Positions 51,757 to 64,000 of a stretch of 64,000 nt of DNA are shown here, one piece after another. How positions within the stretch are numbered: the first letter of the stretch is position 1; each line of letters opens with the position of its first letter. The notes below the pieces were generated by a model. That model did not search any database and had not been told where the DNA came from. It worked only from the letters and a program-made list of their open reading frames with translations. A program made the translations under genes and the position numbers. The stretch covers positions 310,001 to 374,000 of the forward strand of contig JODX01000002.1 in assembly GCA_000719105.1 (NCBI GenBank). The letters run 5' to 3'. Origin of the DNA: Streptomyces sclerotialus (GTDB lineage Bacteria; Actinomycetota; Actinomycetes; Streptomycetales; Streptomycetaceae).

Positions 51757-51877
51757 ACGTGCCCCCTGATCTTCGTACGTCGTCGTGGTGCCGGCGTACC
51801 GCGACGTGACTTCACTTGATTGATGCGGTGGGCCCCCCGGAATGTTTCATCAGGGAGAAGGGATACGGTGCGTCGTG

Positions 51878-52297: not shown

Positions 52298-52312
52298 CCC
52301 CCGGCCACCGGC

Positions 52313-52510
52313 TCAGAGCAGGTGATCGGCCTTGCCCGCCTTGATGTCGAGGATGAGGGTGCGGAGCGCTTCGCGGGTGTCGGTGAGGTAGGTGTCCTCG
52401 GCGCCGGCTATGGCGATGTAGGCGTTGCCGACGTCGTCCGTGCCGAGGCGGAAGCAACTGGCGCCTTCTCCGCAGAAGGGCTCTTCCCAGGTGATCGTGT
52501 TGACGTTCAT
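52313..52510 (-). CDS. DUF397 small protein
   Basis: A 65-residue protein: ITWEEPFCGEGASCFRLGTD, NAYIAIAG, then a helix (TREALRTLILDIKAGKADHL). The central WEEPFCG-EGASCF, with two Cys, resembles DUF397 proteins of Streptomyces, which accompany XRE/DUF5753 regulators and an ATPase. ATG 52510 is the family start, 11 nt after the XRE gene's stop, so the two are transcribed together. Often described as part of developmental or antibiotic-regulating triads. Confidence 0.82.
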   Translation of the reverse strand: MNVNTITWEEPFCGEGASCFRLGTDDVGNAYIAIAGAEDTYLTDTREALRTLILDIKAGKADHLL

Positions 52511-52521
52511 CGGCCGCTTCC

Positions 52522-53373
52522 TCACAGGTTGTCGGTGATCTCGCGGATGAAGTCGCGTGATGCCTCCGGCGACAGGGCGATGCGTTCCATCCAATCCAGG
52601 TGTGCGCGGTACTTGGCCAGTTGCGCCTCACTGCCCAGGAACTCCGGGCCGTGCGAGCTGTCAACCTGGGCCGTGTCCAACTGGGGGACGGGGCCTTCGA
52701 GGTAATTGACGATTTGCCCCGCGCCGGGGAATGTCCCTGCGGCGAAGGGGATGACCAGAAGGTGTACGGACGGCCGTTCGGACACAGTGAGCAGATGCTC
52801 CAGCTGGGCACGTGCCAGCTTGCGTCCGCCGAACTGCATGCGCAGCGCGGCCTCGTGCACGATGCCGACGTACTTGACCGGGTCGTCGCCGTCCAGCACC
52901 TGCTGCCTCTCCATGCGGAATGCCAGCCGCAGGGCGATCTCATGCTCGGGAAGGGGCGGCAGTACGGCTCTGAAGAGCTCGATCGCATGGTCGCTGGTCT
53001 GGAACAGGCCGGGGATGTGCGTTGTGTGCGCGGTCCGCATGCGCGACGCGTAAGTCTCCAGCTCGGCGATATCGAGGAGCCCAGCGGAGAGAGACCCTCG
53101 ATATCGCTCCCACCAGCCTCGCCCGGTGGGGCGAGCCATGCTCACCAGCGCGTTCACGTAAGCCTCGTCCGAACAGGCACAGTTACAGGCCAGGGTGCGC
53201 AGCCTCTCCGGGCTGATGGTTCGGATGCCCGTCTCGATATTGCTGATCTTCGCCCGATCCAGGCCAAGGAGCCCAGCGGCTTGGTCGGCTGACACCCCGG
53301 CGGCTGTCCGCATCTTGCGCAACTCGCTGCCCAGACGCTTTTGGCGCTCCGTGGGTGTCGTCCTCGGTGGCAT
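52522..53373 (-). CDS. XRE-family regulator with DUF5753 (WhiJ-like)
   Basis: A 283-residue regulator. The helix-turn-helix is at about residues 12-65 (LGSELRKMRTAAGVSADQAAGLLGLDRAKISNIETGIR). The DUF5753 effector domain follows (GLLDIAELETYASRMRTAH, HIPGLFQTSDHA, FRMERQQVL, LLVIPFAAGTFPG, FLGSEAQLAKYRAHLDWM). ATG 53373 has GGAAGGGA upstream; GTG 53397 is the only longer alternative. It precedes the DUF397 gene and is divergent from the ATPase, the layout of WhiJ/AbaA-like triads. Confidence 0.92.
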   Translation of the reverse strand: MPPRTTPTERQKRLGSELRKMRTAAGVSADQAAGLLGLDRAKISNIETGIRTISPERLRTLACNCACSDEAYVNALVSMARPTGRGWWERYRGSLSAGLLDIAELETYASRMRTAHTTHIPGLFQTSDHAIELFRAVLPPLPEHEIALRLAFRMERQQVLDGDDPVKYVGIVHEAALRMQFGGRKLARAQLEHLLTVSERPSVHLLVIPFAAGTFPGAGQIVNYLEGPVPQLDTAQVDSSHGPEFLGSEAQLAKYRAHLDWMERIALSPEASRDFIREITDNL

Positions 53374-53497
53374 GGCCGTCCCTTCCGCTGCGCTCACGTG
53401 GAGTCTCCCAATTCTGAACGGCAGCGGTTCACGAACGGGTCAATTTCACTGATCAGGTGGCAATGTAACCAACGGCCATCCTACATTCAGTAACGCA

Positions 53498-53518
53498 CCA
53501 ACTACACGTAGCAGTTGG
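53498..53518. promoter_or_regulatory. candidate operator in the XRE/ATPase divergent region
   Basis: CCAACT (53498-53503) mirrors AGTTGG (53513-53518) over 9 nt, with the inner palindrome CTAC-AC-GTAG (53502-53511). It lies in the 265-base region between the divergent genes, the place expected for the XRE site. Confidence 0.4.
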
Positions 53519-53638
53519 AAGTGCATCGCGCGAGCCTGCCCGCAGCCTCCTCCCCTGGGAGGGGCGGCCCGCGCCAGGGAGACAGGCCACCGACTGCCGC
53601 GCAGCACCCTCACTCAACCCGACGAACCGGAGAACGCC

Positions 53639-54049
53639 ATGTCCGAGCCCCCGACCTGGCAGTGCAACCTCCAGCTGACCAACGACCTACGCGCCCCCCA
53701 CATCGCCCGCCACACCATCCGCACCGCACTGCTCGGCCACGCAAGCCCGCCGGACCTCACCGACACGGCGGAGCTGCTGACCTCGGAGCTGGTCTCCAAC
53801 TCCGTCAAGCACTCCGACGGCCCGGTCACCGTCAGACTCCGCTGCCGCCCGGAGGGCATCCGTGTCGGAGTCCTGGACAACCACCCGGACCTCCCCGATC
53901 CCCTCCCTTGCACCACCGACCAGGCCTTCGGCCGCGGCCTGTACCTGGTGGAAACCTTGGCCGACGCGTGGGGCCGCTATCCGGTGAGCAGCCGCTTTCG
54001 GATGCCGGGATGGAAGGTGGTGTGGTTCGAACTGGCCGCGCGCGAGTAG
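53639..54049 (+). CDS. RsbW-like ATP-binding protein (HATPase_c)
   Basis: A 136-residue ATPase of the histidine-kinase-like fold used in anti-sigma factors. N box: ELLTSELVSNSVKHS. The G1 box VLDNHPDLP is altered from the DxGxG pattern, and the G2 region reads GRGLYLVETLADAWG. The sequence GHASPPDLTDTAELLTSE and length fit Streptomyces anti-sigma-like regulators. It is divergent from the XRE/DUF397 pair. Kinase activity and its partner are unknown. Confidence 0.88.
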   Translation: MSEPPTWQCNLQLTNDLRAPHIARHTIRTALLGHASPPDLTDTAELLTSELVSNSVKHSDGPVTVRLRCRPEGIRVGVLDNHPDLPDPLPCTTDQAFGRGLYLVETLADAWGRYPVSSRFRMPGWKVVWFELAARE

Positions 54050-54433
54050 CGCCCGCACCTCGGCGGGGAAGCAGCGGAGTCCGCCACGGACGCGTGGGTC
54101 CTTGACCGCGCCGGAGTGAACCTGGTTCGATCATGTACATGAAGCCCGGACGCCCGATCCTCACGCGACGACGTCACGTCGATCTCGCGCGGACGTCCGG
54201 TGCCCTCTGTCACCACGGGCGCTGACCCCGACGGCCTGCCGCTCTCCGGCGCGCCCGTCCCGCCCCCTGCTGCCCAGTCGCAGCCCGTTCCCGGTTCCCG
54301 GTGCTCGGACCCCGTTCCCGGCTGCCCAGTACCGCAGCCCTCCGCGCAGCCACCCCCCGTCACGTCAACCCGTACGGGAGCCCGCATGTGCTCACGTACG
54401 GGCTCCCCCGCACGGAAGGCCCCTGCCCGAACC
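54050..54433. other. 384-base region between the ATPase and a secreted protein gene
   Basis: Contains TTGACC-N18-TTCGAT (54102-54131), a possible promoter, and short near-repeats of CGTTCCCGG around 54287-54318. Near the gene is a hairpin, GGGAGCCCG (54376-54384) with CGGGCTCCC (54399-54407). It would lie in the leader and may act as an attenuator; it also covers an in-frame ATG at 54386, which argues for ATG 54434 as the start. No ORF with coding character was seen. Confidence 0.5.
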
Positions 54434-55915
54434 ATGTCCCGACCGCCCGCCCGCCGCCGCGGCACCGCGCGTAGACCGCTCGCCGCCGCCCTGCTCTCCG
54501 CCCTCGCCCTCGCGGCCGCCGCCGTACCCGCACACGCCGCACCCACCGGCGTCACCGCGTCCACCGCCTACACCCCGGTACCCCCGCACAACCCGTACGC
54601 CGGCCCCGACGGCACCGCCACCATGCACGGCGACGCCGGCTCCTCGGACACCACCCCGCTCGCCGGGCCCGGCGCCGGCGCGCTGTCGTCGGAGCGGCTG
54701 GCCCTCGCCTGCCCGACCGTGCTGGTGGGATCCGACGGCTACCCCGTCGTCCTGTGCACGCCGATCTTCGGGCAGGTGCCGACCGTGCACCTCCTCGACC
54801 CCGACGACGGCTCCTCGCTGGCCACCCTCAAACTGACCAAGGGCTTGCTGCTGGGCGGGGTCTACGCCTACATCGACAACAGGGACCGCCTGGTCGTCGC
54901 GGACGGCAGCCGCAGTCTGCTCCGCGTCGGTCATCACCAGGACGCCGACGATAACTGGAAGTTGGCGATCGACCAGAGCCTCTCCCTCGCATCCGTGATC
55001 CCCGAGGGTGACGCTGTGACCGGGCTGTCGCCCGACTGGCAGGGGCGGGTCTGGTTCGCCACCGGCAACGGCGTGGTCGGTACCGCCGACGACCGTACGG
55101 GTGCGGTCCGCGCCCTCACCCTGCCCGCCGGGGAACGCGTCGCCAACAGCATCTCCACCGCCCCGCAGGGCACCGCCGTCACCACCACCCACGCCACCTA
55201 CCTGCTCACCGCCGGCGCCGACGGCACGCCCAAGATCTCGTGGCGGCAGGCCTACGACCACGGTCAGGCCCGCAAGCCCGGCCTGCTGAGCTGGGGCAGC
55301 GGTTCGACCCCGACGTTCCTCGGCCCGACGGCGGGCACCGATTACGTCGCCATCGTCGACAACGCCGATACCACCGTCCGCCTCAAGGTCTACCGGACCT
55401 CCACCGGCGCCGAGGTCTGCTCCGTGCCCGTCCTGCGCGCCGCGGGCGGCCCCGGCAGCGAGAACTCGCCCGTCGGCGCCGGGAACAGCGTCTTCGTCGC
55501 CGGTACGTACGGCTATCCCTACCCGGCGGTCCCCGACGGGGCGGGCGACAGCGTCCCGGCCTCCGCCGACTTCGCCGGCGGTCTCACCCGTGTCGACGTA
55601 CGCGCCGACGGCACCGGCTGCACCGAGGTGTGGGACAACGCCCTGCGCTCGGCGGCCGTGCCCAAGCTGTCGACCGCCGGCGGCACCCTGCACACGGTGG
55701 TGCGGGACCCGCTGATCCAGGGCACGAAGGGCACCAGCATCCTGGACCCTTACTGGTACGTGCAGATCGACCCGGAGACCGGGACCGTCAAGCGCTCCAA
55801 GCAGGTCGGCATCGGCTCGCTGTACGACACCCTCCAGATGGCGGGCACCATCGCCCCGGACGGCACCTACCTCCAGGGCACCGTGACCGGGGTGCTGCGC
55901 ATCACCGCCGGATGA
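54434..55915 (+). CDS. secreted propeller-like protein of unknown function
   Basis: A 493-residue exported protein. The signal peptide (RPPARRRGTARRPLAAALLSALALAAAAV, cleaved near PAHA) precedes a beta-rich mature part with repeated strand motifs typical of propellers: ACPTVLVGSDGYPVVLCTPIFG, GLSPDWQGRVWFATGNGVVGT, HATYLLTAGADGTPKISW, YWYVQIDPETGTVKR. ATG 54434 is chosen; ATG 54386 is in frame but lies inside a hairpin. No catalytic motif or anchor was recognised. Cys residues could form disulfides outside the cell. Confidence 0.78.
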   Translation: MSRPPARRRGTARRPLAAALLSALALAAAAVPAHAAPTGVTASTAYTPVPPHNPYAGPDGTATMHGDAGSSDTTPLAGPGAGALSSERLALACPTVLVGSDGYPVVLCTPIFGQVPTVHLLDPDDGSSLATLKLTKGLLLGGVYAYIDNRDRLVVADGSRSLLRVGHHQDADDNWKLAIDQSLSLASVIPEGDAVTGLSPDWQGRVWFATGNGVVGTADDRTGAVRALTLPAGERVANSISTAPQGTAVTTTHATYLLTAGADGTPKISWRQAYDHGQARKPGLLSWGSGSTPTFLGPTAGTDYVAIVDNADTTVRLKVYRTSTGAEVCSVPVLRAAGGPGSENSPVGAGNSVFVAGTYGYPYPAVPDGAGDSVPASADFAGGLTRVDVRADGTGCTEVWDNALRSAAVPKLSTAGGTLHTVVRDPLIQGTKGTSILDPYWYVQIDPETGTVKRSKQVGIGSLYDTLQMAGTIAPDGTYLQGTVTGVLRITAG

Positions 55916-56633
55916 CGCCCCGCCGTCGGCGCCCGTGGTGAGGCAGGCGCGCTGCCCGTGGAGGTAGCGCGCCTGCAACACGATCACCGTGTGTGCCAGC
56001 GGCTGTCGGATACTCCGCGTGTCGTAAGTGGCCGCCGTCAGCTAGAACGAGCTGAGCAATCGCCGTGAGAACTGACCGGGGGTGGTGTCATGGCGTGATC
56101 CAGCGGTGTAGGCCGGGAGGCCGGGGCGCCGGTCGGCCCCTCCCTCAGGGTGCGTACCGGATCCCGGGGGAGCTTCGCGGACCACGCGGGGCATCGAGTT
56201 CATCTGGCTCGAGATTTGCCGCGCCCAGCGCCCAGTACCGCCCGAACAACGACGCAATGCAACGTTCCGCGATCCTGGAGATCGGTCCGTGGAGACCGTT
56301 CTGAGGTCGGCCATGCAGAATTTCGTCTTTTCTTTGTCGAAACGGGATGATCCGGAGATGAACGGTCTTCACGGACAATAGTGAACTCTTAGCTGCAGAC
56401 ACGTCCAGGAACGCCGCGCCAGGGCTATTCGTCGAGGTCAGGCGGAGGAATCAGTTCCGATTCCCTCTGTTCACAGGGACTTCACTGCATGTACTGTCCC
56501 GCATCACAGGTGTGCCCATTGACCTGCCCTTTTGTCGTGCTGGGGAGCACGGTGGAGGCACGTCGGGTGCGCCATTTCATTGTTGAGTTGCGGTCGGTGG
56601 CTCTCACCGACGGCATGGGGTGGGAGTCTTCGG
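55916..56633. other. 718-base gene-poor region before the RHS toxin
   Basis: No ORF here reads as a normal protein. It contains a decayed copy of the domain gene of 51878 (56173-56254) and a possible promoter, TTCACA-N16-TACTGT (56470-56497), about 140 nt before the RHS start. Base composition from about 56330 on is clearly less GC-rich than the neighbouring genes, matching the RHS gene's N-terminus. It looks like a junction of acquired and native DNA. Confidence 0.5.
56173..56254 (+). pseudogene. decayed fragment of the kinase-associated domain gene
   Basis: Aligns with 52081-52157 in the gene at 51878. Identical runs include GGGGCATCGAGTTC and the 19-nt TACCGCCCGAACAACGACG (52139-52157 here 56236-56254). 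Insertions and deletions in between break the frame. Only the middle third of the domain is left. Confidence 0.75.
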
Positions 56634-59600
56634 GTGTCTGCTCGTCGTGCGCGTTTTGCGTCGCTGGGGTTGGTCGGTGCGTTGCTGGCCGGTTTGCTGA
56701 CAGTGATGCCGGTGTCGCAGCAGGAGGCTGTGGCGGCGGATGATTCGACGCCCGTGGTGCCGTCACAATCGTTGGGAACGGCGCCTCCGCAGCAGACGGA
56801 GGAAGTCGGAAAGCCGCTCCCTGCTCCCGATTGGCCGAATGCCGCGGAGGCGGCTGTGGACCTTTCCGAGGTCGAGCCGGGCGAGCCTGGCACGGTTGAG
56901 CCGTCACCATCATCGGCGAGCTCGGATGAAGGTGCTACTCAGGTTGCTGAGGTGGTTGAGGTAACACCAGTGGCAGCCGATATGCAGGGGATCTCGCCGC
57001 ACTCGGCCTCGAGTCGACGAGTAGCGGAGGAAGGGACGCCCGCTCCCAGCCTGGGCAACTCGGCGAGCAGCGAGCCGAGTGGCAGTCCGTCGCCGCCTGC
57101 TTCCGAGTCGCCGAGCCTGTCGGACTTTGCTTCGCCGTCGCCTTCTGAGACGGCTCCGAAGAGTGTGTCTCCGGAGCAGGTGGAGGTGCGGGTTCTGGAC
57201 CGGCAGGAGGTGGAGCCGGCCGGTGGTGTGGGCCTTGGTCTGCAGGTGACCCGCGCGGACGGTGTGGATGAGCCGGGTCGGGTCCAGGTCGATGTCGACT
57301 ACTCGAGATTCAAGTACGCCTATGGCGGTGACTTCGCCGGGCGGCTGCGGCTGGTGAAGATGCCCGCGTGCGCGCTGGAGACGCCGCAGGCGGAGGGCTG
57401 CACCGAGCGCGAGTACGTGCCGGCCGACAACGACACCAAGACGGGAACGCTGACCGCCACGGTGATCGCCGAGCCCGATGCGGGCGAGGGGACCACCACG
57501 CAGCTGATCGCCACGGCGAGTGCGAGCGTGTATGCGCTGGCGACGGGTTCGTCGTCGGATCAGGGCGACTACAGGGCGTCCACTCTGTCGGCAACGGGGT
57601 CATGGGGGGTGTCCACTGGGTCGGGTGCGTTCACGTACGACTATCCGTTCCAGTTGCCTTCGCCGCCGATGGGTTCGGCGCCCTCGCTGGCGCTGACGTA
57701 CAACTCGCAGTCGGTTGACGGCCGTACCTCGGCAAGCAACAACCAGGCGTCCTGGGTCGGTATGGGCTGGGACCTGAGCGTCGGCTTCATCGAGCGTAAG
57801 TACCGCAACTGCACTGACGATGGCCTCAAGACGATCGGTGACCTGTGCTGGGATTCACCGAACTCGACCAAGGAACCCTCGGGCGCTGTCTATGTGATCA
57901 ACCTCAACGGTGTGACCTCGGAGTTGATCCAGGACAACAACGGCACCGGTGCCTACCACCTCAAGGACGACCCGGGCTGGCGGGTTCAGCGACTGTTCGG
58001 CGGGCACGGTGCCGGCCGGGACGGTGAGTACTGGGTGATCTCCACCCAGGACGGCAAGCGCTACTACTTCGGCTGGGGCCGCTCCGAGCGCACCACCACC
58101 GCCACGGCTTCCGTGTTCACCGCACCGGTCGTCGGCAACAACGCCGGTGAGCCCTGCCACGACCAGTTCCCCGAGCCGTGCACCCAGGCATGGCGATGGA
58201 ACCTGGATCGGGCGGTCGACGCCAACGAGGTCGAGACCATGTACTTCTACGACAAGGAGTACAACCACTACCGGTCGGTCGCGAACGCCGACAAGGCGCG
58301 CAGCTACGTCTCGGCGGGCTATGTGAAGGAGATCCAGTACGGCTGGGCCTCGCAGATCCCGGATGCCAAGGTGCCCGCGAAGGTCGAGCTGACACACGTC
58401 AACCGTTGCATCGAGCGGATGGCGGACAACGATCCGCTGCGCAGCGAGCCCAAGGCCTGCCCGACCTTCAAGGAGAAGCCGACCTCGTACCCGGACGTCC
58501 CCATCGACTTGATGTGTGACGGAACGGCCGGCGACTACGACTGCGCGGGCAAGACGTACTACCCCACGTTCTTCTCCACGGACATGCTCTGGGACATCAA
58601 GACCTACGTGTCGGACCAGTTCGGCAGCGGCTGGGACCTGGTGCAGCAGTACCAGACCAAGAAGGGTTTGCCCAACCCGGACGGCTCGGTGGGGAAGACG
58701 CTGTGGCTGGACTACATCCAGCGTAAGACCTACGGCAACGGCACCGACCTGGTGCTGCCGGTCACCAACTTCAACGGCACCGACCTGGACAACAAGGTCG
58801 GCTCGACCGAGCTGAACTTCCGGCGTGTCAACGAGATCCACAACGACCTCGGCGCCACCATCAAGGTCACATATGGGCTCGCCAACGCCTGCACCGCGGA
58901 CGACCTGCCGTCCCAGTCCTCGAACACGATGGACTGCTACTGGCAGAAGTGGACCCCGGAAGGGGCTACGGAGTCCAAGTCGGGCTGGTTCAAGAAATTC
59001 CTGGTGACCAAGGTGGAGGTCGACCCGACCGTCACCACCAACCAGGACGGTGCCCCGGTGATGACCACCTCGTACACCTACGAGGACGGGGCGGGTTGGC
59101 GCTTCACCAATGACCCTCTGACTCCGGACGAGGACGAGTCCTGGTCGGACTGGCGCGGATACCAGGAGGTGCAGGTCACCACCGGTTCCGGCACCACCAA
59201 GAAGACCACCAAGTACTGGCTCTATCGCGGCCTCTCCGGAGACAGGACCTCCAAGACCGACCCGTCGGCCACCAAGACCGTCACGGTCAATGACGGCGAC
59301 GGCAACAACTACACCGACCACGACTGGCTCACAGGCAAGCCGCTGTCCACGTCGTTGCGCGACGACCAGGATGTCTCGCAGGAGCGCACCTACCACACCT
59401 ACTGGGACCACAACACCGCCCAGTACGACGGCCTGCCTGATGCCCGTTTCGTACGGGAGAGCAAGACCGTCACCAACAGCAAGACCTCAGCGGGCTGGCG
59501 TGAGCACGTGGTCGAGAACGAGTACGACCCCGCTGAGGCTGCCTCGACCACGTTCGGCTTGCCGATGCGCATGGACGACTGGGGCGAAACCGGTGTCTCG

Positions 59601-62600
59601 GACAACCGCTGCACCACCTACGGGCGCGCCTACAACACCGACGACTACGACTCCACCGGCGCCCAGCGCTGGACCGTCCTGCAGGACCAGGTCAAGCACT
59701 ACTCGGTGGGCTGCACCAGCGCAGCAGACTCGAACCAGGACGCCTACGCCAGCACGCTGTATGACGGTGCGACCGCGGTCGCGGACAACAAGCCGGCCGA
59801 TGGCAACCCGACCGAGGTGCGCACCTACACCGGGGCTGGCACGTACCGGACGGTGAACACCGGTTACGACAAGGCCGGACGAATCATCTGGGCCGAGGAC
59901 GGTAAGCGCAACCGGACCACCACCACATACAGTCCGGCAAACACATGGCCGCTCGACGGCATCACCACGACGACACCGGATCCGGACGGAACGGCCTCCG
60001 CCCGGATGGGCCTCAGCACCACAAGCTGGCCCTCGCGTTTCTGGGGCGCGGCGTACCAGGTCAGGGACGCCAACGGGAACATCACGAAGACGACCCTGGA
60101 TGCCGCTGGGCGCCCGGTGGAGGTGTGGAAGCCGACCGAGACCGGCACCTCGCCGTCCATGAAGTTCAGCTACACCATCCCCACCTCCACCAACGGCTCA
60201 GGCGTCCCTGATGCAGTGGACGGCTACCCACATGTCACCAGCAGCGTCCTTCAGTCCGGCAGCACCTACGTCACTGCGCACAGCTATACGGACGCGGTGG
60301 GGCGCGCCCGCGAGACGCAGAATCCGCTGCCGGACGACGTCGACCCCGGGACCAAGTTGTCCGTTCCCTACCGCCAGGTGGCCGTCACCCGCTACGACTC
60401 GGCCGGCAACGTCGCCGGCGTCTCCGACGTGTTCCGTAACCAGGGCAAGGCAGGGACCGGCGGCCCGTCCAGCCCGAAGGTCGCCGATCTGCCTTCCTAC
60501 GCCGACGTGGTGGTGGACTGGGCAGGGCGCGCAACGCTCGCCCAGCTCCAGGCCAACGGCGTGACACAGCCCCACGGCAAGATCACCACCAGCTACTTCG
60601 GCGACTACACCAAGGTCACCCCGGCCGTCGGCGGCGCCACCGACACCTACACCGATGTGTACGGCCAGACCGGCAAGGTCGTCGAATACGACACCTCCAC
60701 GACCTACACCACCACCTACGGCTACACGGGCAAGGGCGAACTCGCAAGCATCACCGACACGCGAGGCAACGACACCCTTTACAGCTACAACTGGGCCGGC
60801 CAACGTACAGCGGTCGACGACCCCGACATGGGTAAGTCGTCCACGGTCTACGACGCCAACGGTCAGGTCGAGAGGGTCACCAGCAACGCTGGGAAGACCG
60901 TCCTCACCTATGGATACGACAACCTCGGCCGTGAGACGTCCATGTCCAGCGGCGCCGACCAGCTCGCCGCCTGGATATGGGACGAGCCCGGTGTCCCCGG
61001 CGGCAAGGGCCAGATCACGAGCACTGTCGGCCGGGACGCGGACGGCAACGCGTACACCACCAAGATTGCCGAGTTCGACAAGCGGGGACGACCCCTGAAG
61101 TCGACCACGACGATCCCGGCGAACGTGACCGGGCTGGCCGGCAGCTACACCACGACGTACGGCTACGACGCCGCCGACCACATCACCGCCATTGGTTACC
61201 CGGCTGCCGGCGGACTGGCAGCCGAGACGGTCACAGCGTCCTATGACGCGTACGGCTACCCCGAGCAGCTCAAGAGCAGTCTGGGCAACACGGTCTACAT
61301 CGACGACAACGCCTTCGACGCCTACGGCCGCCTGATCGGCCGCGACTACGGGCCGAAGACCGGTGGCACCGGCGCCCGCGCTTACCGCTCCTACGGCTAT
61401 GACGACACCGCCGGCACCCGCTGGCTGAGAAGCATCTCCACCACCAGCACCGTCAACGGCATCACCACCGAGTCCCAGAAGGACACCTACAGCTACGACC
61501 TCGCCGGAAAGATTATCGAGATCCGCGAGCAGGCCAACGGCCAGACCGCCCAGTCGCAATGCTTCAAGTACAACCCCCTGGGCAGCCTGACGAACGCCTA
61601 CACCCGCGCCGCGCAAGGCGACTGCGTCACCACGGCGTCGGACTTCAAGGGCCCATCGCCCTACCAGACGGCTTACACCTACGACCGACTCGGCAACCTG
61701 CAATCGGTCACCGACACCGACAGCGCCGGGAAGGCGACCAAGCGGGACTACCTCTACCCCGGCTATGACGACGCCGGAACCTGGACCACCCCCGACACCG
61801 ACCAGCCGCACGGCGTCCGCAAGATCAACCACATCGCAGACGGTGCCACCACCTCGTCCGATACGTTCACCTATGACGCCGACGGCCGCATGACCACGCG
61901 CGTCGAACCCGCGGCCGGCAAGAACACCGACTACACCTGGACCAAGCTCGGTCAACTCGCCACCGTCAAGACCACCAAGTCCACCGGCAGCGAATTGACC
62001 CGCTACACCTACGACGCGGACGGCAGCGTCCTCGTCCGCACCACACCCAGCGAAACCGTCGCCTACCTCGGCGCCACCGAACTGCGCACCACCGACGGCA
62101 AGGCCGTCACCGCCACCCGCTACTACACCAGCGCCGGCGCCACCGTGGCCATGCGCACCACCGGCCCGGACGGCGGCAGACTCACCTACCTGATGGCCGA
62201 CCCCCAGGCCTCCACCCAGCTCAACATCAACAGCCTCACGGGCGCGGCCGAACGCCGCCGCTACACCCCCTTCGGTGACGACCGCAGCGGCAGCCTTCCC
62301 GCCGGCACCGACCAAGGCTTCCTCGGCAAGCCCGAGGACACCTCAACAGGACTCTCGCTTCTCGGTGCCCGCGCGTATGACCCGAAACTCGGCCGCTTCC
62401 TGAGTGGCGACCCGCTCAACTTCCCCTATCGCCCGCAGAATCTGTCCGCTTACAGCTACAGCCACAACGACCCGATCAACTTCAGCGATCCCACGGGTCT
62501 GTGCGACGACCCGGTCGGCAACGGCCGCTGCATTCCGGGTAGGACCGGAATCGATGCCGTAGATCCTTCTGTACCTACCAACCTCACTCCGCCTGCGTCT

Positions 62601-63710
62601 ACCAACCACACTCCGGCAAACGACTGGCAAGCCGAGTCGAACAGCGCTCAGGATCTCGATGGCGATGGCCTGATCACCGTTTACCCCAGTGTTGAGGTCC
62701 CTGCAGACTGGGCAGGCGCGGATGACTTCATTGCCGCCTTCCGGAAGATCCAGGCTGACTGGGGGAATGGCTGGAACGGCATGATGCCGGGCGATCCGTA
62801 CTCGGAGATGTCCATTGCATCGGCAGCCCTGGAAGCTTGCATGGATTCCAAGTGCTCCGACACGCTGACAATACAGATGCACGCGGACGCGTTGATCGAG
62901 GCGATGGAATTCCAGGCCTCGATCGGAAAACGCTTCAAGGTTGGTGGCGGAGGTGACTCCGAATCATGTGACAGCTTCTTGTCGGAGGCCGAGGTCCTAC
63001 TGGCGGACGGTACCGTCAAGAAGCTCAAGGACATTGAGGTCGGAGACGAAGTCCTCGCGACAGATCCCGAGGAGTCTGAGACTGAGGGAAGAGCCGTCCT
63101 CGCCACCATCATCACCAGTATCGACAAAGAATTTGTCGAGCTGACGCTGGGATCTGGATCGGCTCCTCTCATCGCCACGACGCACCACCCGTTCTGGTCG
63201 CCCTCAGAGAAGGCATGGCTGGACGCCGAGCAGCTCAAGCAGGGCATGACGCTGCGTACCAGCTCCGGCACCGAGGCGACCATCGGTTCGGTCCGCATTT
63301 TCCGGAAACAGCAGGAGACGCGTAACCTCACCGTCGAGGGCTTGCATACGTACTATGTGCTGGCGGGGGCTACGCCGGTCCTGGTTCACAATTCGTCCTC
63401 CTGTGACGTACCTAGCGTGGAAGTCCTCGATGGGACGTGGAGGCGGATGGGCTTCACTTCCCGATCGGAATTCGGCGACGTGGCGTGGGGCGGGCGGAGT
63501 CTCGCAGATGCGAGCAAACTGAAGACCCCGGAACAGTTGGCGAGGATGAGGGAAATTGGCCTCACTCAGGAAGACGCCCAACATTGGCGCAACTTCTACA
63601 TGAATATCCACAACAAGTCGGCGGCGAAGTTCCCCAATAATCCGGAAAAGGTAAATCCGAGCGCCCGGTCGAGGGCGGACCTTTTTCAGTACTACATAGA
63701 CAACCTCTAA
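56634..63710 (+). CDS. RHS-repeat polymorphic toxin with Hint domain and C-terminal toxin tail
   Basis: A 2358-residue secreted toxin. Signal peptide (RRARFASLGLVGALLAGLLT, cleaved near AVAAD), Ser/Pro-rich linker, then YD/RHS repeats (YDANGQVERV, YGYDAADHIT, TYDADGRMT). The RHS core end is near residue 1950 (GDPLNFPYRPQNLSAYSYSHNDP, DPTGL). A linker follows, then a Hint self-cleaving domain at about 2112-2253: Cys2112 in ESCDSFLSEAEVLLADG, ATTHHPFW, and VLVHN with His2252-Asn2253. The 105-residue tail (VEVLDGTWRRMGFTSRSEFG to LFQYYIDNL) is the toxin. GTG 56634 has GGGAG upstream. A likely immunity gene follows directly. Confidence 0.92.
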   Translation: MSARRARFASLGLVGALLAGLLTVMPVSQQEAVAADDSTPVVPSQSLGTAPPQQTEEVGKPLPAPDWPNAAEAAVDLSEVEPGEPGTVEPSPSSASSDEGATQVAEVVEVTPVAADMQGISPHSASSRRVAEEGTPAPSLGNSASSEPSGSPSPPASESPSLSDFASPSPSETAPKSVSPEQVEVRVLDRQEVEPAGGVGLGLQVTRADGVDEPGRVQVDVDYSRFKYAYGGDFAGRLRLVKMPACALETPQAEGCTEREYVPADNDTKTGTLTATVIAEPDAGEGTTTQLIATASASVYALATGSSSDQGDYRASTLSATGSWGVSTGSGAFTYDYPFQLPSPPMGSAPSLALTYNSQSVDGRTSASNNQASWVGMGWDLSVGFIERKYRNCTDDGLKTIGDLCWDSPNSTKEPSGAVYVINLNGVTSELIQDNNGTGAYHLKDDPGWRVQRLFGGHGAGRDGEYWVISTQDGKRYYFGWGRSERTTTATASVFTAPVVGNNAGEPCHDQFPEPCTQAWRWNLDRAVDANEVETMYFYDKEYNHYRSVANADKARSYVSAGYVKEIQYGWASQIPDAKVPAKVELTHVNRCIERMADNDPLRSEPKACPTFKEKPTSYPDVPIDLMCDGTAGDYDCAGKTYYPTFFSTDMLWDIKTYVSDQFGSGWDLVQQYQTKKGLPNPDGSVGKTLWLDYIQRKTYGNGTDLVLPVTNFNGTDLDNKVGSTELNFRRVNEIHNDLGATIKVTYGLANACTADDLPSQSSNTMDCYWQKWTPEGATESKSGWFKKFLVTKVEVDPTVTTNQDGAPVMTTSYTYEDGAGWRFTNDPLTPDEDESWSDWRGYQEVQVTTGSGTTKKTTKYWLYRGLSGDRTSKTDPSATKTVTVNDGDGNNYTDHDWLTGKPLSTSLRDDQDVSQERTYHTYWDHNTAQYDGLPDARFVRESKTVTNSKTSAGWREHVVENEYDPAEAASTTFGLPMRMDDWGETGVSDNRCTTYGRAYNTDDYDSTGAQRWTVLQDQVKHYSVGCTSAADSNQDAYASTLYDGATAVADNKPADGNPTEVRTYTGAGTYRTVNTGYDKAGRIIWAEDGKRNRTTTTYSPANTWPLDGITTTTPDPDGTASARMGLSTTSWPSRFWGAAYQVRDANGNITKTTLDAAGRPVEVWKPTETGTSPSMKFSYTIPTSTNGSGVPDAVDGYPHVTSSVLQSGSTYVTAHSYTDAVGRARETQNPLPDDVDPGTKLSVPYRQVAVTRYDSAGNVAGVSDVFRNQGKAGTGGPSSPKVADLPSYADVVVDWAGRATLAQLQANGVTQPHGKITTSYFGDYTKVTPAVGGATDTYTDVYGQTGKVVEYDTSTTYTTTYGYTGKGELASITDTRGNDTLYSYNWAGQRTAVDDPDMGKSSTVYDANGQVERVTSNAGKTVLTYGYDNLGRETSMSSGADQLAAWIWDEPGVPGGKGQITSTVGRDADGNAYTTKIAEFDKRGRPLKSTTTIPANVTGLAGSYTTTYGYDAADHITAIGYPAAGGLAAETVTASYDAYGYPEQLKSSLGNTVYIDDNAFDAYGRLIGRDYGPKTGGTGARAYRSYGYDDTAGTRWLRSISTTSTVNGITTESQKDTYSYDLAGKIIEIREQANGQTAQSQCFKYNPLGSLTNAYTRAAQGDCVTTASDFKGPSPYQTAYTYDRLGNLQSVTDTDSAGKATKRDYLYPGYDDAGTWTTPDTDQPHGVRKINHIADGATTSSDTFTYDADGRMTTRVEPAAGKNTDYTWTKLGQLATVKTTKSTGSELTRYTYDADGSVLVRTTPSETVAYLGATELRTTDGKAVTATRYYTSAGATVAMRTTGPDGGRLTYLMADPQASTQLNINSLTGAAERRRYTPFGDDRSGSLPAGTDQGFLGKPEDTSTGLSLLGARAYDPKLGRFLSGDPLNFPYRPQNLSAYSYSHNDPINFSDPTGLCDDPVGNGRCIPGRTGIDAVDPSVPTNLTPPASTNHTPANDWQAESNSAQDLDGDGLITVYPSVEVPADWAGADDFIAAFRKIQADWGNGWNGMMPGDPYSEMSIASAALEACMDSKCSDTLTIQMHADALIEAMEFQASIGKRFKVGGGGDSESCDSFLSEAEVLLADGTVKKLKDIEVGDEVLATDPEESETEGRAVLATIITSIDKEFVELTLGSGSAPLIATTHHPFWSPSEKAWLDAEQLKQGMTLRTSSGTEATIGSVRIFRKQQETRNLTVEGLHTYYVLAGATPVLVHNSSSCDVPSVEVLDGTWRRMGFTSRSEFGDVAWGGRSLADASKLKTPEQLARMREIGLTQEDAQHWRNFYMNIHNKSAAKFPNNPEKVNPSARSRADLFQYYIDNL

Positions 63711-63718
63711 GGGTGAAC

Positions 63719-63964
63719 ATGCGTTTTGTGATCCGAGCGGACACGTCGGTAGTAGTGGCTTTCGAGCCGACTGCGGCCGAGTGCCTCCTGGAACCAGGAA
63801 AGACCATCGTTGTGGAATGGTTCGACGGGGGTGACGATGGCATGGTCTCCTTGGAGGCGGGGTGCTTCGTCGTTGCTGCCCCGAGTGGTGGATACACAAG
63901 GGCGTGGGACTCCGACGGCATGGAAATCTATGTAGGTCCCGAGTCCGGGCCAGAAGCGCGCTGA
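63719..63964 (+). CDS. candidate immunity protein for the RHS toxin
   Basis: An 81-residue small protein, not recognised: MRFVIRADTSVVVAFEPTA, then LEPGKTIVVEWFDGGDDG and YTRAWDSDGMEIYVGP. It is acidic with beta-strand character, like many immunity proteins. ATG 63719 (or GTG 63713) lies within 10 nt of the toxin's stop, with AAGG upstream, so it is transcribed and translated with the toxin. Position and size are the evidence; no family is claimed. Confidence 0.7.
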   Translation: MRFVIRADTSVVVAFEPTAAECLLEPGKTIVVEWFDGGDDGMVSLEAGCFVVAAPSGGYTRAWDSDGMEIYVGPESGPEAR

Positions 63965-63992
63965 CTCGAGAGGCGTGGTAAGGGGATCTTTG

Positions 63993-64000
63993 GTGAAATC
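63993..64000 (+). CDS. possible start of a further gene at the window's end
   Basis: AAGGGGAT (63980-63987) followed by GTG 63993 looks like a start site, giving only M-K before the sequence ends. It could be another member of the toxin/immunity region. Nothing about the product can be said. Confidence 0.25.

What the first reader, a model, noticed from the sequence alone, without database searches (positions are those of the whole stretch)
56634..63964. Complete secreted RHS-Hint polymorphic toxin with adjacent small immunity candidate
Sequence shows signal peptide, Ser/Pro linker, RHS repeats, RHS core, a Hint domain with its Cys and final HN, and a distinct C-terminal tail, directly followed by an 81-residue ORF. 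Known biology: RHS proteins carry a releasable toxin at the C-terminus, and the next gene neutralises it. In this protein the Hint domain could cut off the tail. It uses Sec export rather than a T6SS, which suits a Gram-positive contact-independent or wall-released toxin.
Basis: partly seen in the sequence, partly recalled or inferred. Interest (0 to 1): 0.72.

Follow-up and report, generated by a model that had tools for sequence, protein, structure and literature searches.

The report
Streptomyces RHS-Hint toxin with immunity gene
A soil bacterium carries a giant secreted protein with a swappable end piece that looks like a weapon against rival bacteria, next to a small gene that travels with that end piece and probably protects the owner; the overall design is known, but this particular weapon-and-shield pair carries no such label in the databases searched.

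Summary
One 2358-aa ORF (56634-63710) has a signal-like N-terminus, RHS repeats and core, a PT-HINT domain (about 2112-2253) and a 105-aa tail (2254-2358). An 81-aa gene (63719-63964) starts 8 nt after its stop codon, and a strong hairpin follows.

It behaves as a polymorphic toxin locus. The closest shell relative found has an unrelated tail and next gene. The same tail sits on other RHS chassis. All 10 tail loci read as DNA carry the small gene directly downstream; 0 of 15 RHS loci with other tails do. The two families co-diverge overall. The ~13.4-kb segment is missing at this site in three relatives, and a fourth holds a different RHS there.

Toxicity, protection, cleavage and delivery remain untested.

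The parts
56634..63710 (+). RHS-Hint polymorphic toxin gene, 2358 aa, GTG start, TAA stop
56634..56735 (+). Probable Sec-type signal peptide (residues 1-34, ...AVA/AD), read by eye; N-terminus conserved in the closest relative
   Evidence: L065 aligns from residue 1
62262..62501 (+). RHS-associated core (residues 1877-1956), ending in DPTGL at 1952-1956, a motif recalled as a cleavage site in other RHS proteins
62967..63392 (+). PT-HINT domain (about residues 2112-2253): block A Ser2114, TTHH at 2182-2185, terminal H2252-N2253
63393..63707 (+). C-terminal toxin candidate (residues 2254-2358), DUF4951-like all-helical domain; Ser at position +1 after HN
63709..63713 (+). Shine-Dalgarno-like AAGGG overlapping the toxin stop codon (by eye)
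63719..63964 (+). Immunity candidate, 81 aa, acidic (pI 4.05), predicted all-beta, no signal peptide by eye; a 17-bp hairpin follows just outside the window (window-extended 64035-64073)
52311..64000 (.). Left part of a segment of about 13.4 kb (right end at window-extended 65687) absent at this site in three relatives and replaced by a different RHS segment in a fourth

Best explanation
This is a probably Sec-exported RHS polymorphic toxin with its immunity gene, in a swappable chromosomal cassette. Shown by sequence: the RHS shell, the Hint, a modular tail carried on several chassis, a small gene that follows the tail family at every locus read and co-diverges with it, and tail replacement on a related shell. 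Inferred: the RHS shell encloses the tail; the Hint cuts after Asn2253 by Asn cyclisation and frees the 105-aa tail; the tail enters a neighbouring cell and acts in the cytosol. The 81-aa acidic beta protein binds and blocks the tail in the producer's cytosol. The tail is a DUF4951-like helical domain. With no conserved His, and with invariant Tyr, Asn and Arg and a near-invariant Trp, I favour interference with nucleic acid or translation over membrane attack, but only weakly (about 60:40).
For: Domain hits over cut-off. Tail swap on the closest shell found: L065 shares 63.6% identity over residues 1-1969 and 57.6% over the Hint (2113-2259), then carries an unrelated tail and an unrelated 168-aa next gene. 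Same tail (61-79% identity) on six other full-length RHS proteins, three with a precomputed PT-HINT hit (P0044, P0045, P0047) and three without (P0046, P0048, P0049); P0047 is a different chassis. Small gene directly downstream in 10 of 10 tail loci read as DNA (21 to 155 bits; at L082 the adjacent copy has 33), nine of which were found by searching for the tail; 0 of 15 RHS loci with other tails (best 4.9 bits). Co-divergence: rho 0.78 over 14 pairs (0 of 5000 permutations as high), 0.69 over the 10 pairs read from DNA (3 of 5000). Coupled genes: 8-nt gap and a hairpin after both (-40.6 kcal/mol, z -6.1). Insertion at a variable site.
Against: No toxicity or protection data. Within the eight closest pairs the co-divergence is not significant (rho 0.33, 652 of 5000 permutations as high). 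Eight stretches carry small-gene relatives without a tail match, three of them beside the same NUDIX-like gene in related genomes, so the small gene may have another role, though orphan immunity genes are common (recalled). For P0045 no small-gene relative could be matched by contig, and its DNA was not seen; nor was that of the short tail-only entries P0038-P0041. The Acinetobacter DUF4951 relative is a stand-alone protein with a signal-like N-terminus and no small-gene match in the 10 kb around it (best 1.9 bits), so the fold is not always a toxin of this kind. Three of the six other full-length carriers lack a PT-HINT hit, so Hint release is not essential to the tail.
Confidence: 0.85

Rival explanations
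1. The tail is toxic, but the small gene is not its immunity protein; it is a chaperone, export partner or regulator that shares the operon.
For: Small-gene relatives occur without a tail match at 8 stretches, three beside the same NUDIX-like gene.
Against: Its subtypes match tail subtypes over large divergence; it is absent from 15 of 15 RHS loci with other tails, so it belongs to the tail, not to the RHS shell or to export; one locus has two tandem copies of different subtypes (L082), as immunity arrays do (recalled).
Confidence: 0.1
2. The tail is not a toxin; the RHS protein is a surface or adhesion protein and the DUF4951-like domain is a structural end cap.
For: DUF4951 has no described function in the libraries searched, and a stand-alone relative exists in Acinetobacter. 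No catalytic motif could be named.
Against: Tail replacement right after the Hint, a linked partner gene and the same site holding another RHS whose tail looks by eye like an LHH/HNH nuclease are the signature of toxin cassettes.
Confidence: 0.05
3. The Hint splices instead of only cleaving: it removes itself and joins the RHS part to the tail.
For: Ser or Cys at block A position 1 in 36 of 38 and Ser/Thr/Cys at +1 in 33 of 38 Hints read, against 5 to 12 of 38 at positions +2 to +7. A published passage says bacterial intein-like domains lack the +1 nucleophile and therefore mostly cleave (PMC7664689); another says a BIL domain spliced once Tyr+1 was changed to Cys (PMC4031507).
Against: HINT domains of polymorphic toxins are described as autopeptidases (passages of PMC3482391), and type A BIL domains, which end in His-Asn, are said to give mostly cleavage products (PMC4031507). 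The Hints read are related and were the best-scoring loci, so 33 of 38 are not independent events. Window block A has Ala where most have Thr. A spliced product would leave the toxin attached to the shell.
Confidence: 0.1

Closest known systems
WapA/WapI of Bacillus subtilis (RHS-type toxin with immunity gene; passages of PMC5566331)
   Same: Gram-positive RHS-type protein (RHS kinship recalled) with a toxin and a protective partner gene
   Different: WapA is described as acting on tRNA; the tail here is a DUF4951-like helical domain and a Hint precedes it. WapA is reported as contact-dependent; delivery here is unknown.
RHS polymorphic toxins with HINT (Zhang et al. 2012, PMC3482391; listing and passages)
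   Same: RHS repeats, HINT autopeptidase just before a variable C-terminal toxin, listed immunity families
   Different: In the passages read, no toxin class was recognised as this tail; the paper was not read whole and a different name there is possible
DUF4951 (PF16309; PDB 2MMB, Acinetobacter baumannii)
   Different: The tail is below the Pfam cut-off (24.5 vs 27.3 bits). The Acinetobacter protein is stand-alone, 125 aa, with a signal-like N-terminus
Bacterial teneurin-like proteins (PMC13018210, abstract and two Results sections)
   Same: RHS/YD shell with a variable C-terminal toxin and an immunity gene directly downstream
   Different: No test was made here for the teneurin-specific domains
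Type A bacterial intein-like (BIL) domains (passages of PMC4031507 and PMC7664689)
   Same: Hint fold ending in His-Asn
   Different: BIL domains are said to lack a +1 nucleophile; 33 of 38 Hints read here have Ser/Thr/Cys there

Membership tests
RHS polymorphic toxin | RHS repeats and RHS-associated core | tested here: met
   RHS_repeat 34.6 bits (cut-off 22), Rhs_assc_core 64.2 bits (cut-off 32.5)
RHS polymorphic toxin | N-terminal export signal | tested here: inconclusive
   Hydrophobic signal-like N-terminus read by eye, conserved in L065; no predictor available
RHS polymorphic toxin | C-terminal domain exchanged between related shells | tested here: met
   Different tail on a shell of 64% identity; same tail on other chassis
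RHS polymorphic toxin | Cognate downstream immunity gene | tested here: met
   10 of 10 tail loci read as DNA, 0 of 15 control loci; co-divergence. Genetic linkage only; protection not tested
RHS polymorphic toxin | Tail is toxic to cells lacking the immunity protein | not testable with these tools
   needs expression
PT-HINT | Pfam profile over cut-off | tested here: met
   61.5 bits against 27.7
PT-HINT | Active-site residues: block A nucleophile, block B TxxH, terminal HN | tested here: met
   Ser2114 (aligned position 1), T2182 and H2185, H2252-N2253; what the blocks are is recalled
PT-HINT | Autocleavage | not testable with these tools
   needs protein chemistry
DUF4951 (PF16309) | Score over the curated cut-off | tested here: not met
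   Window tail alone 24.5 bits against 27.3; 7 of 10 tails match at E <= 0.05, best 1.5e-7, the bits of the others not shown
DUF4951 (PF16309) | Fold of the solved member 2MMB | tested here: met
WapA/WapI | tRNase C-terminal domain and wall-binding repeats (recalled) | not tested
   WapA not aligned; no claim of membership

The most novel reading that the evidence does not exclude
The Hint domains of actinobacterial RHS toxins keep the complete active-site set of a splicing intein (Ser/Cys at position 1, TxxH, His-Asn and Ser/Thr/Cys at +1) and may splice or form a branched ester intermediate, so that release or attachment of the toxin is a controlled choice rather than simple cleavage.
Probability: 0.12. 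Interest if true: 0.75.

Novelty: new member of a known kind. Interest (0 to 1): 0.45.

Why it matters
It would give a functional role, as an antibacterial effector domain, to the DUF4951 fold, which has a solved structure but no described function in the libraries searched, and would name its partner, an unannotated acidic beta protein. It also shows a chromosomal site in Streptomyces that is empty in some relatives and holds different RHS segments in others. The conserved +1 nucleophile makes the chemistry of toxin-associated Hint domains directly testable.

Tried and rejected

Empty-site test: 40 relatives were searched with each flank, the match lists were capped, and only four genomes (G009, G297, G307, G303) showed both flanks next to the same site in the rows I saw; the others are unresolved. 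In G307 the left homology ends at 51849, not at 52311.

Count of Hint +1 residues: one search listed over 100 PT-HINT matches, and I read the 30 loci it gave plus 10 loci and 3 proteins already held. A first pattern (41 rows, 31 with Ser/Thr/Cys at +1) caught an internal HN in six loci and was replaced. The second gave 40 rows; I dropped one false internal row of P0045 and one row (L068) that duplicates L128, leaving 38. L119, L120, L127 and P0047 gave no row. For 2 of 38 the block A position was not read by the pattern.

Full report
What is there. The window carries one long ORF, 56634-63710, of 2358 aa. Pfam and NCBIfam place RHS repeats, an RHS-associated core (1877-1956) and a PT-HINT domain (2124-2254) in it, all over the curated cut-offs. 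By eye it begins with a signal peptide and a Ser/Pro-rich stretch; the closest relative's protein aligns from residue 1, so the long form is conserved there, although one database entry for this contig is 2174 aa. The Hint ends H2252-N2253 and the tail is 2254-2358. The stop codon is followed after 8 nt by an 81-aa gene (63719-63964) with a Shine-Dalgarno-like AAGGG overlapping the stop. A 17-bp hairpin begins 70 nt after that gene (window-extended 64035-64073; fold of 66 nt -40.6 kcal/mol, shuffles -22.1 with sd 3.0, z -6.1). Toxin and small gene thus look like one transcription unit.

Tail exchange. A shell fragment (residues 331-830) is found in 40 of 61 genomes (the window's own and 60 relatives). 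I read 11 of the matched loci. The closest, L065, is 63.6% identical over residues 1-1969 and 57.6% over the Hint (2113-2259); right after the Hint it carries an unrelated tail and a different 168-aa next gene. None of the 11 carries the window's tail (tail profile at most 6.0 bits). Conversely the window's tail is found, at 61-79% identity, on six other full-length RHS proteins from Saccharothrix, Kitasatospora, Streptomyces (two), Nonomuraea and one unnamed source; three have a PT-HINT hit and three do not, and the Nonomuraea chassis is of another type. The tail is therefore a mobile module. Three other RHS loci in the same genome, found by the RHS core, have different tails.

Partner gene. 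The tail is rare: 3 of 297 family genomes by single sequence, 7 of 392 genus genomes by profile, and only the window itself in class (1 of 394) and phylum (1 of 396) samples. In all nine genomes found by the tail, and in a tenth (G032) found first through the small gene, a small-gene relative lies directly downstream. Its profile was built from close relatives only, so the matches at the six distant loci (21 to 84 bits) are out of sample. Fifteen RHS loci with other tails gave at best 4.9 bits. Subtypes match: L078 and L081 have, by eye, closely similar chassis ends but tails of two subtypes, each with a small gene of its own subtype, and L082 has both small-gene subtypes in tandem. Distances of the two families correlate (rho 0.78 over 14 pairs, 0 of 5000 permutations as high; 0.69 over the 10 read from DNA, 3 of 5000), but not significantly within the eight closest pairs (0.33, 652 of 5000). 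Small-gene relatives also occur, in the 14 to 19 kb read around each, without a tail at eight places, most simply as orphan immunity genes.

Site. The flanks of the locus (an ECF sigma factor side, window about 49.9-52.3 kb, and a GH18-family gene, from window-extended 65687) lie 57, 60 and 296 bp apart in three relatives (G307, G297, G009). In G303 the same site holds about 14.9 kb with another RHS protein (ORF of 2249 aa) whose tail looks, by eye, like an LHH/HNH nuclease. About 13.4 kb was thus gained here or lost in the others, and the site takes different RHS segments. The other relatives searched were not resolved at this site.

Hint chemistry. In 38 Hint ends read (the window's included), block A position 1 is Ser in 28, Cys in 8 and unread in 2. 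The residue after His-Asn is Ser, Thr or Cys in 33 of 38, against 5 to 12 of 38 at the next six positions. The window has Ser2114 and Ser2254. In passages of two papers, BIL domains are said to lack this +1 nucleophile and mostly cleave, type A BIL domains to be able to splice with cleavage dominating, and one BIL domain to splice once Tyr+1 was changed to Cys. The sample is of related, best-scoring proteins, so this is a lead, not proof, but it makes splicing by toxin Hint domains testable.

Known or new. RHS-HINT polymorphic toxins are well known (passages of PMC3482391), and Gram-positive contact toxins of this kind have the precedent of WapA (passages of PMC5566331). New, as far as the searches here reach, is this tail-immunity pair, its tie to DUF4951, the insertion site and the +1 observation. 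No toxicity, protection, cleavage or delivery has been shown.

Noticed in passing
L002 9022-9542 (- strand; window-extended 65022-65542): A YoeB-YefM toxin-antitoxin pair (YoeB E 5.8e-40, Phd/YefM E 4.5e-16) lies inside the inserted segment.
   Followed up: partly
window 55946-55988 and window-extended 65013-65055: A 43-bp stretch at 86% identity repeats the 3' end of the yoeB gene on the other side of the RHS locus, perhaps a remnant of duplication or insertion.
   Followed up: partly
L082 1671-2356: Two tandem small-gene relatives of different subtypes behind one distant tail, like an immunity array.
   Followed up: partly
L021, L022, L023: Tail-less small-gene relatives sit directly behind the same NUDIX-like gene (named by eye) in three related genomes, a conserved orphan position.
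   Followed up: partly
L026 10977-11327: Beside a tail-less small-gene relative there is a fragment with a Hint-like end (TYVLAGATSLLVHNC), apparently a decayed toxin cassette.
   Followed up: no
L069 7251-7547: An RHS protein with another tail is followed by a 98-aa protein that looks by eye like an S1 RNA-binding domain, an unusual immunity candidate; L068 8075-8335 may be similar (both in the orientation).
   Followed up: no
L099 (G303): At the same chromosomal site a different segment of about 14.9 kb carries another RHS protein with a tail that looks by eye like an LHH/HNH nuclease.
   Followed up: partly
window 52317-53400 against relatives G298, G302, G305, G312, G315: The stretch with the DUF5753 regulator at the left end of the inserted segment matches places about 10 to 20 kb beyond the right flank, on the same contig, in five relatives, so the segment may be composite or this is a paralogous family.
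   Followed up: no
window-extended 68800-71175: Tad/Flp pilus genes (RcpC/CpaB; a ParA/MinD-type ATPase with a TadE hit in the same frame) lie downstream of the insertion site.
   Followed up: no
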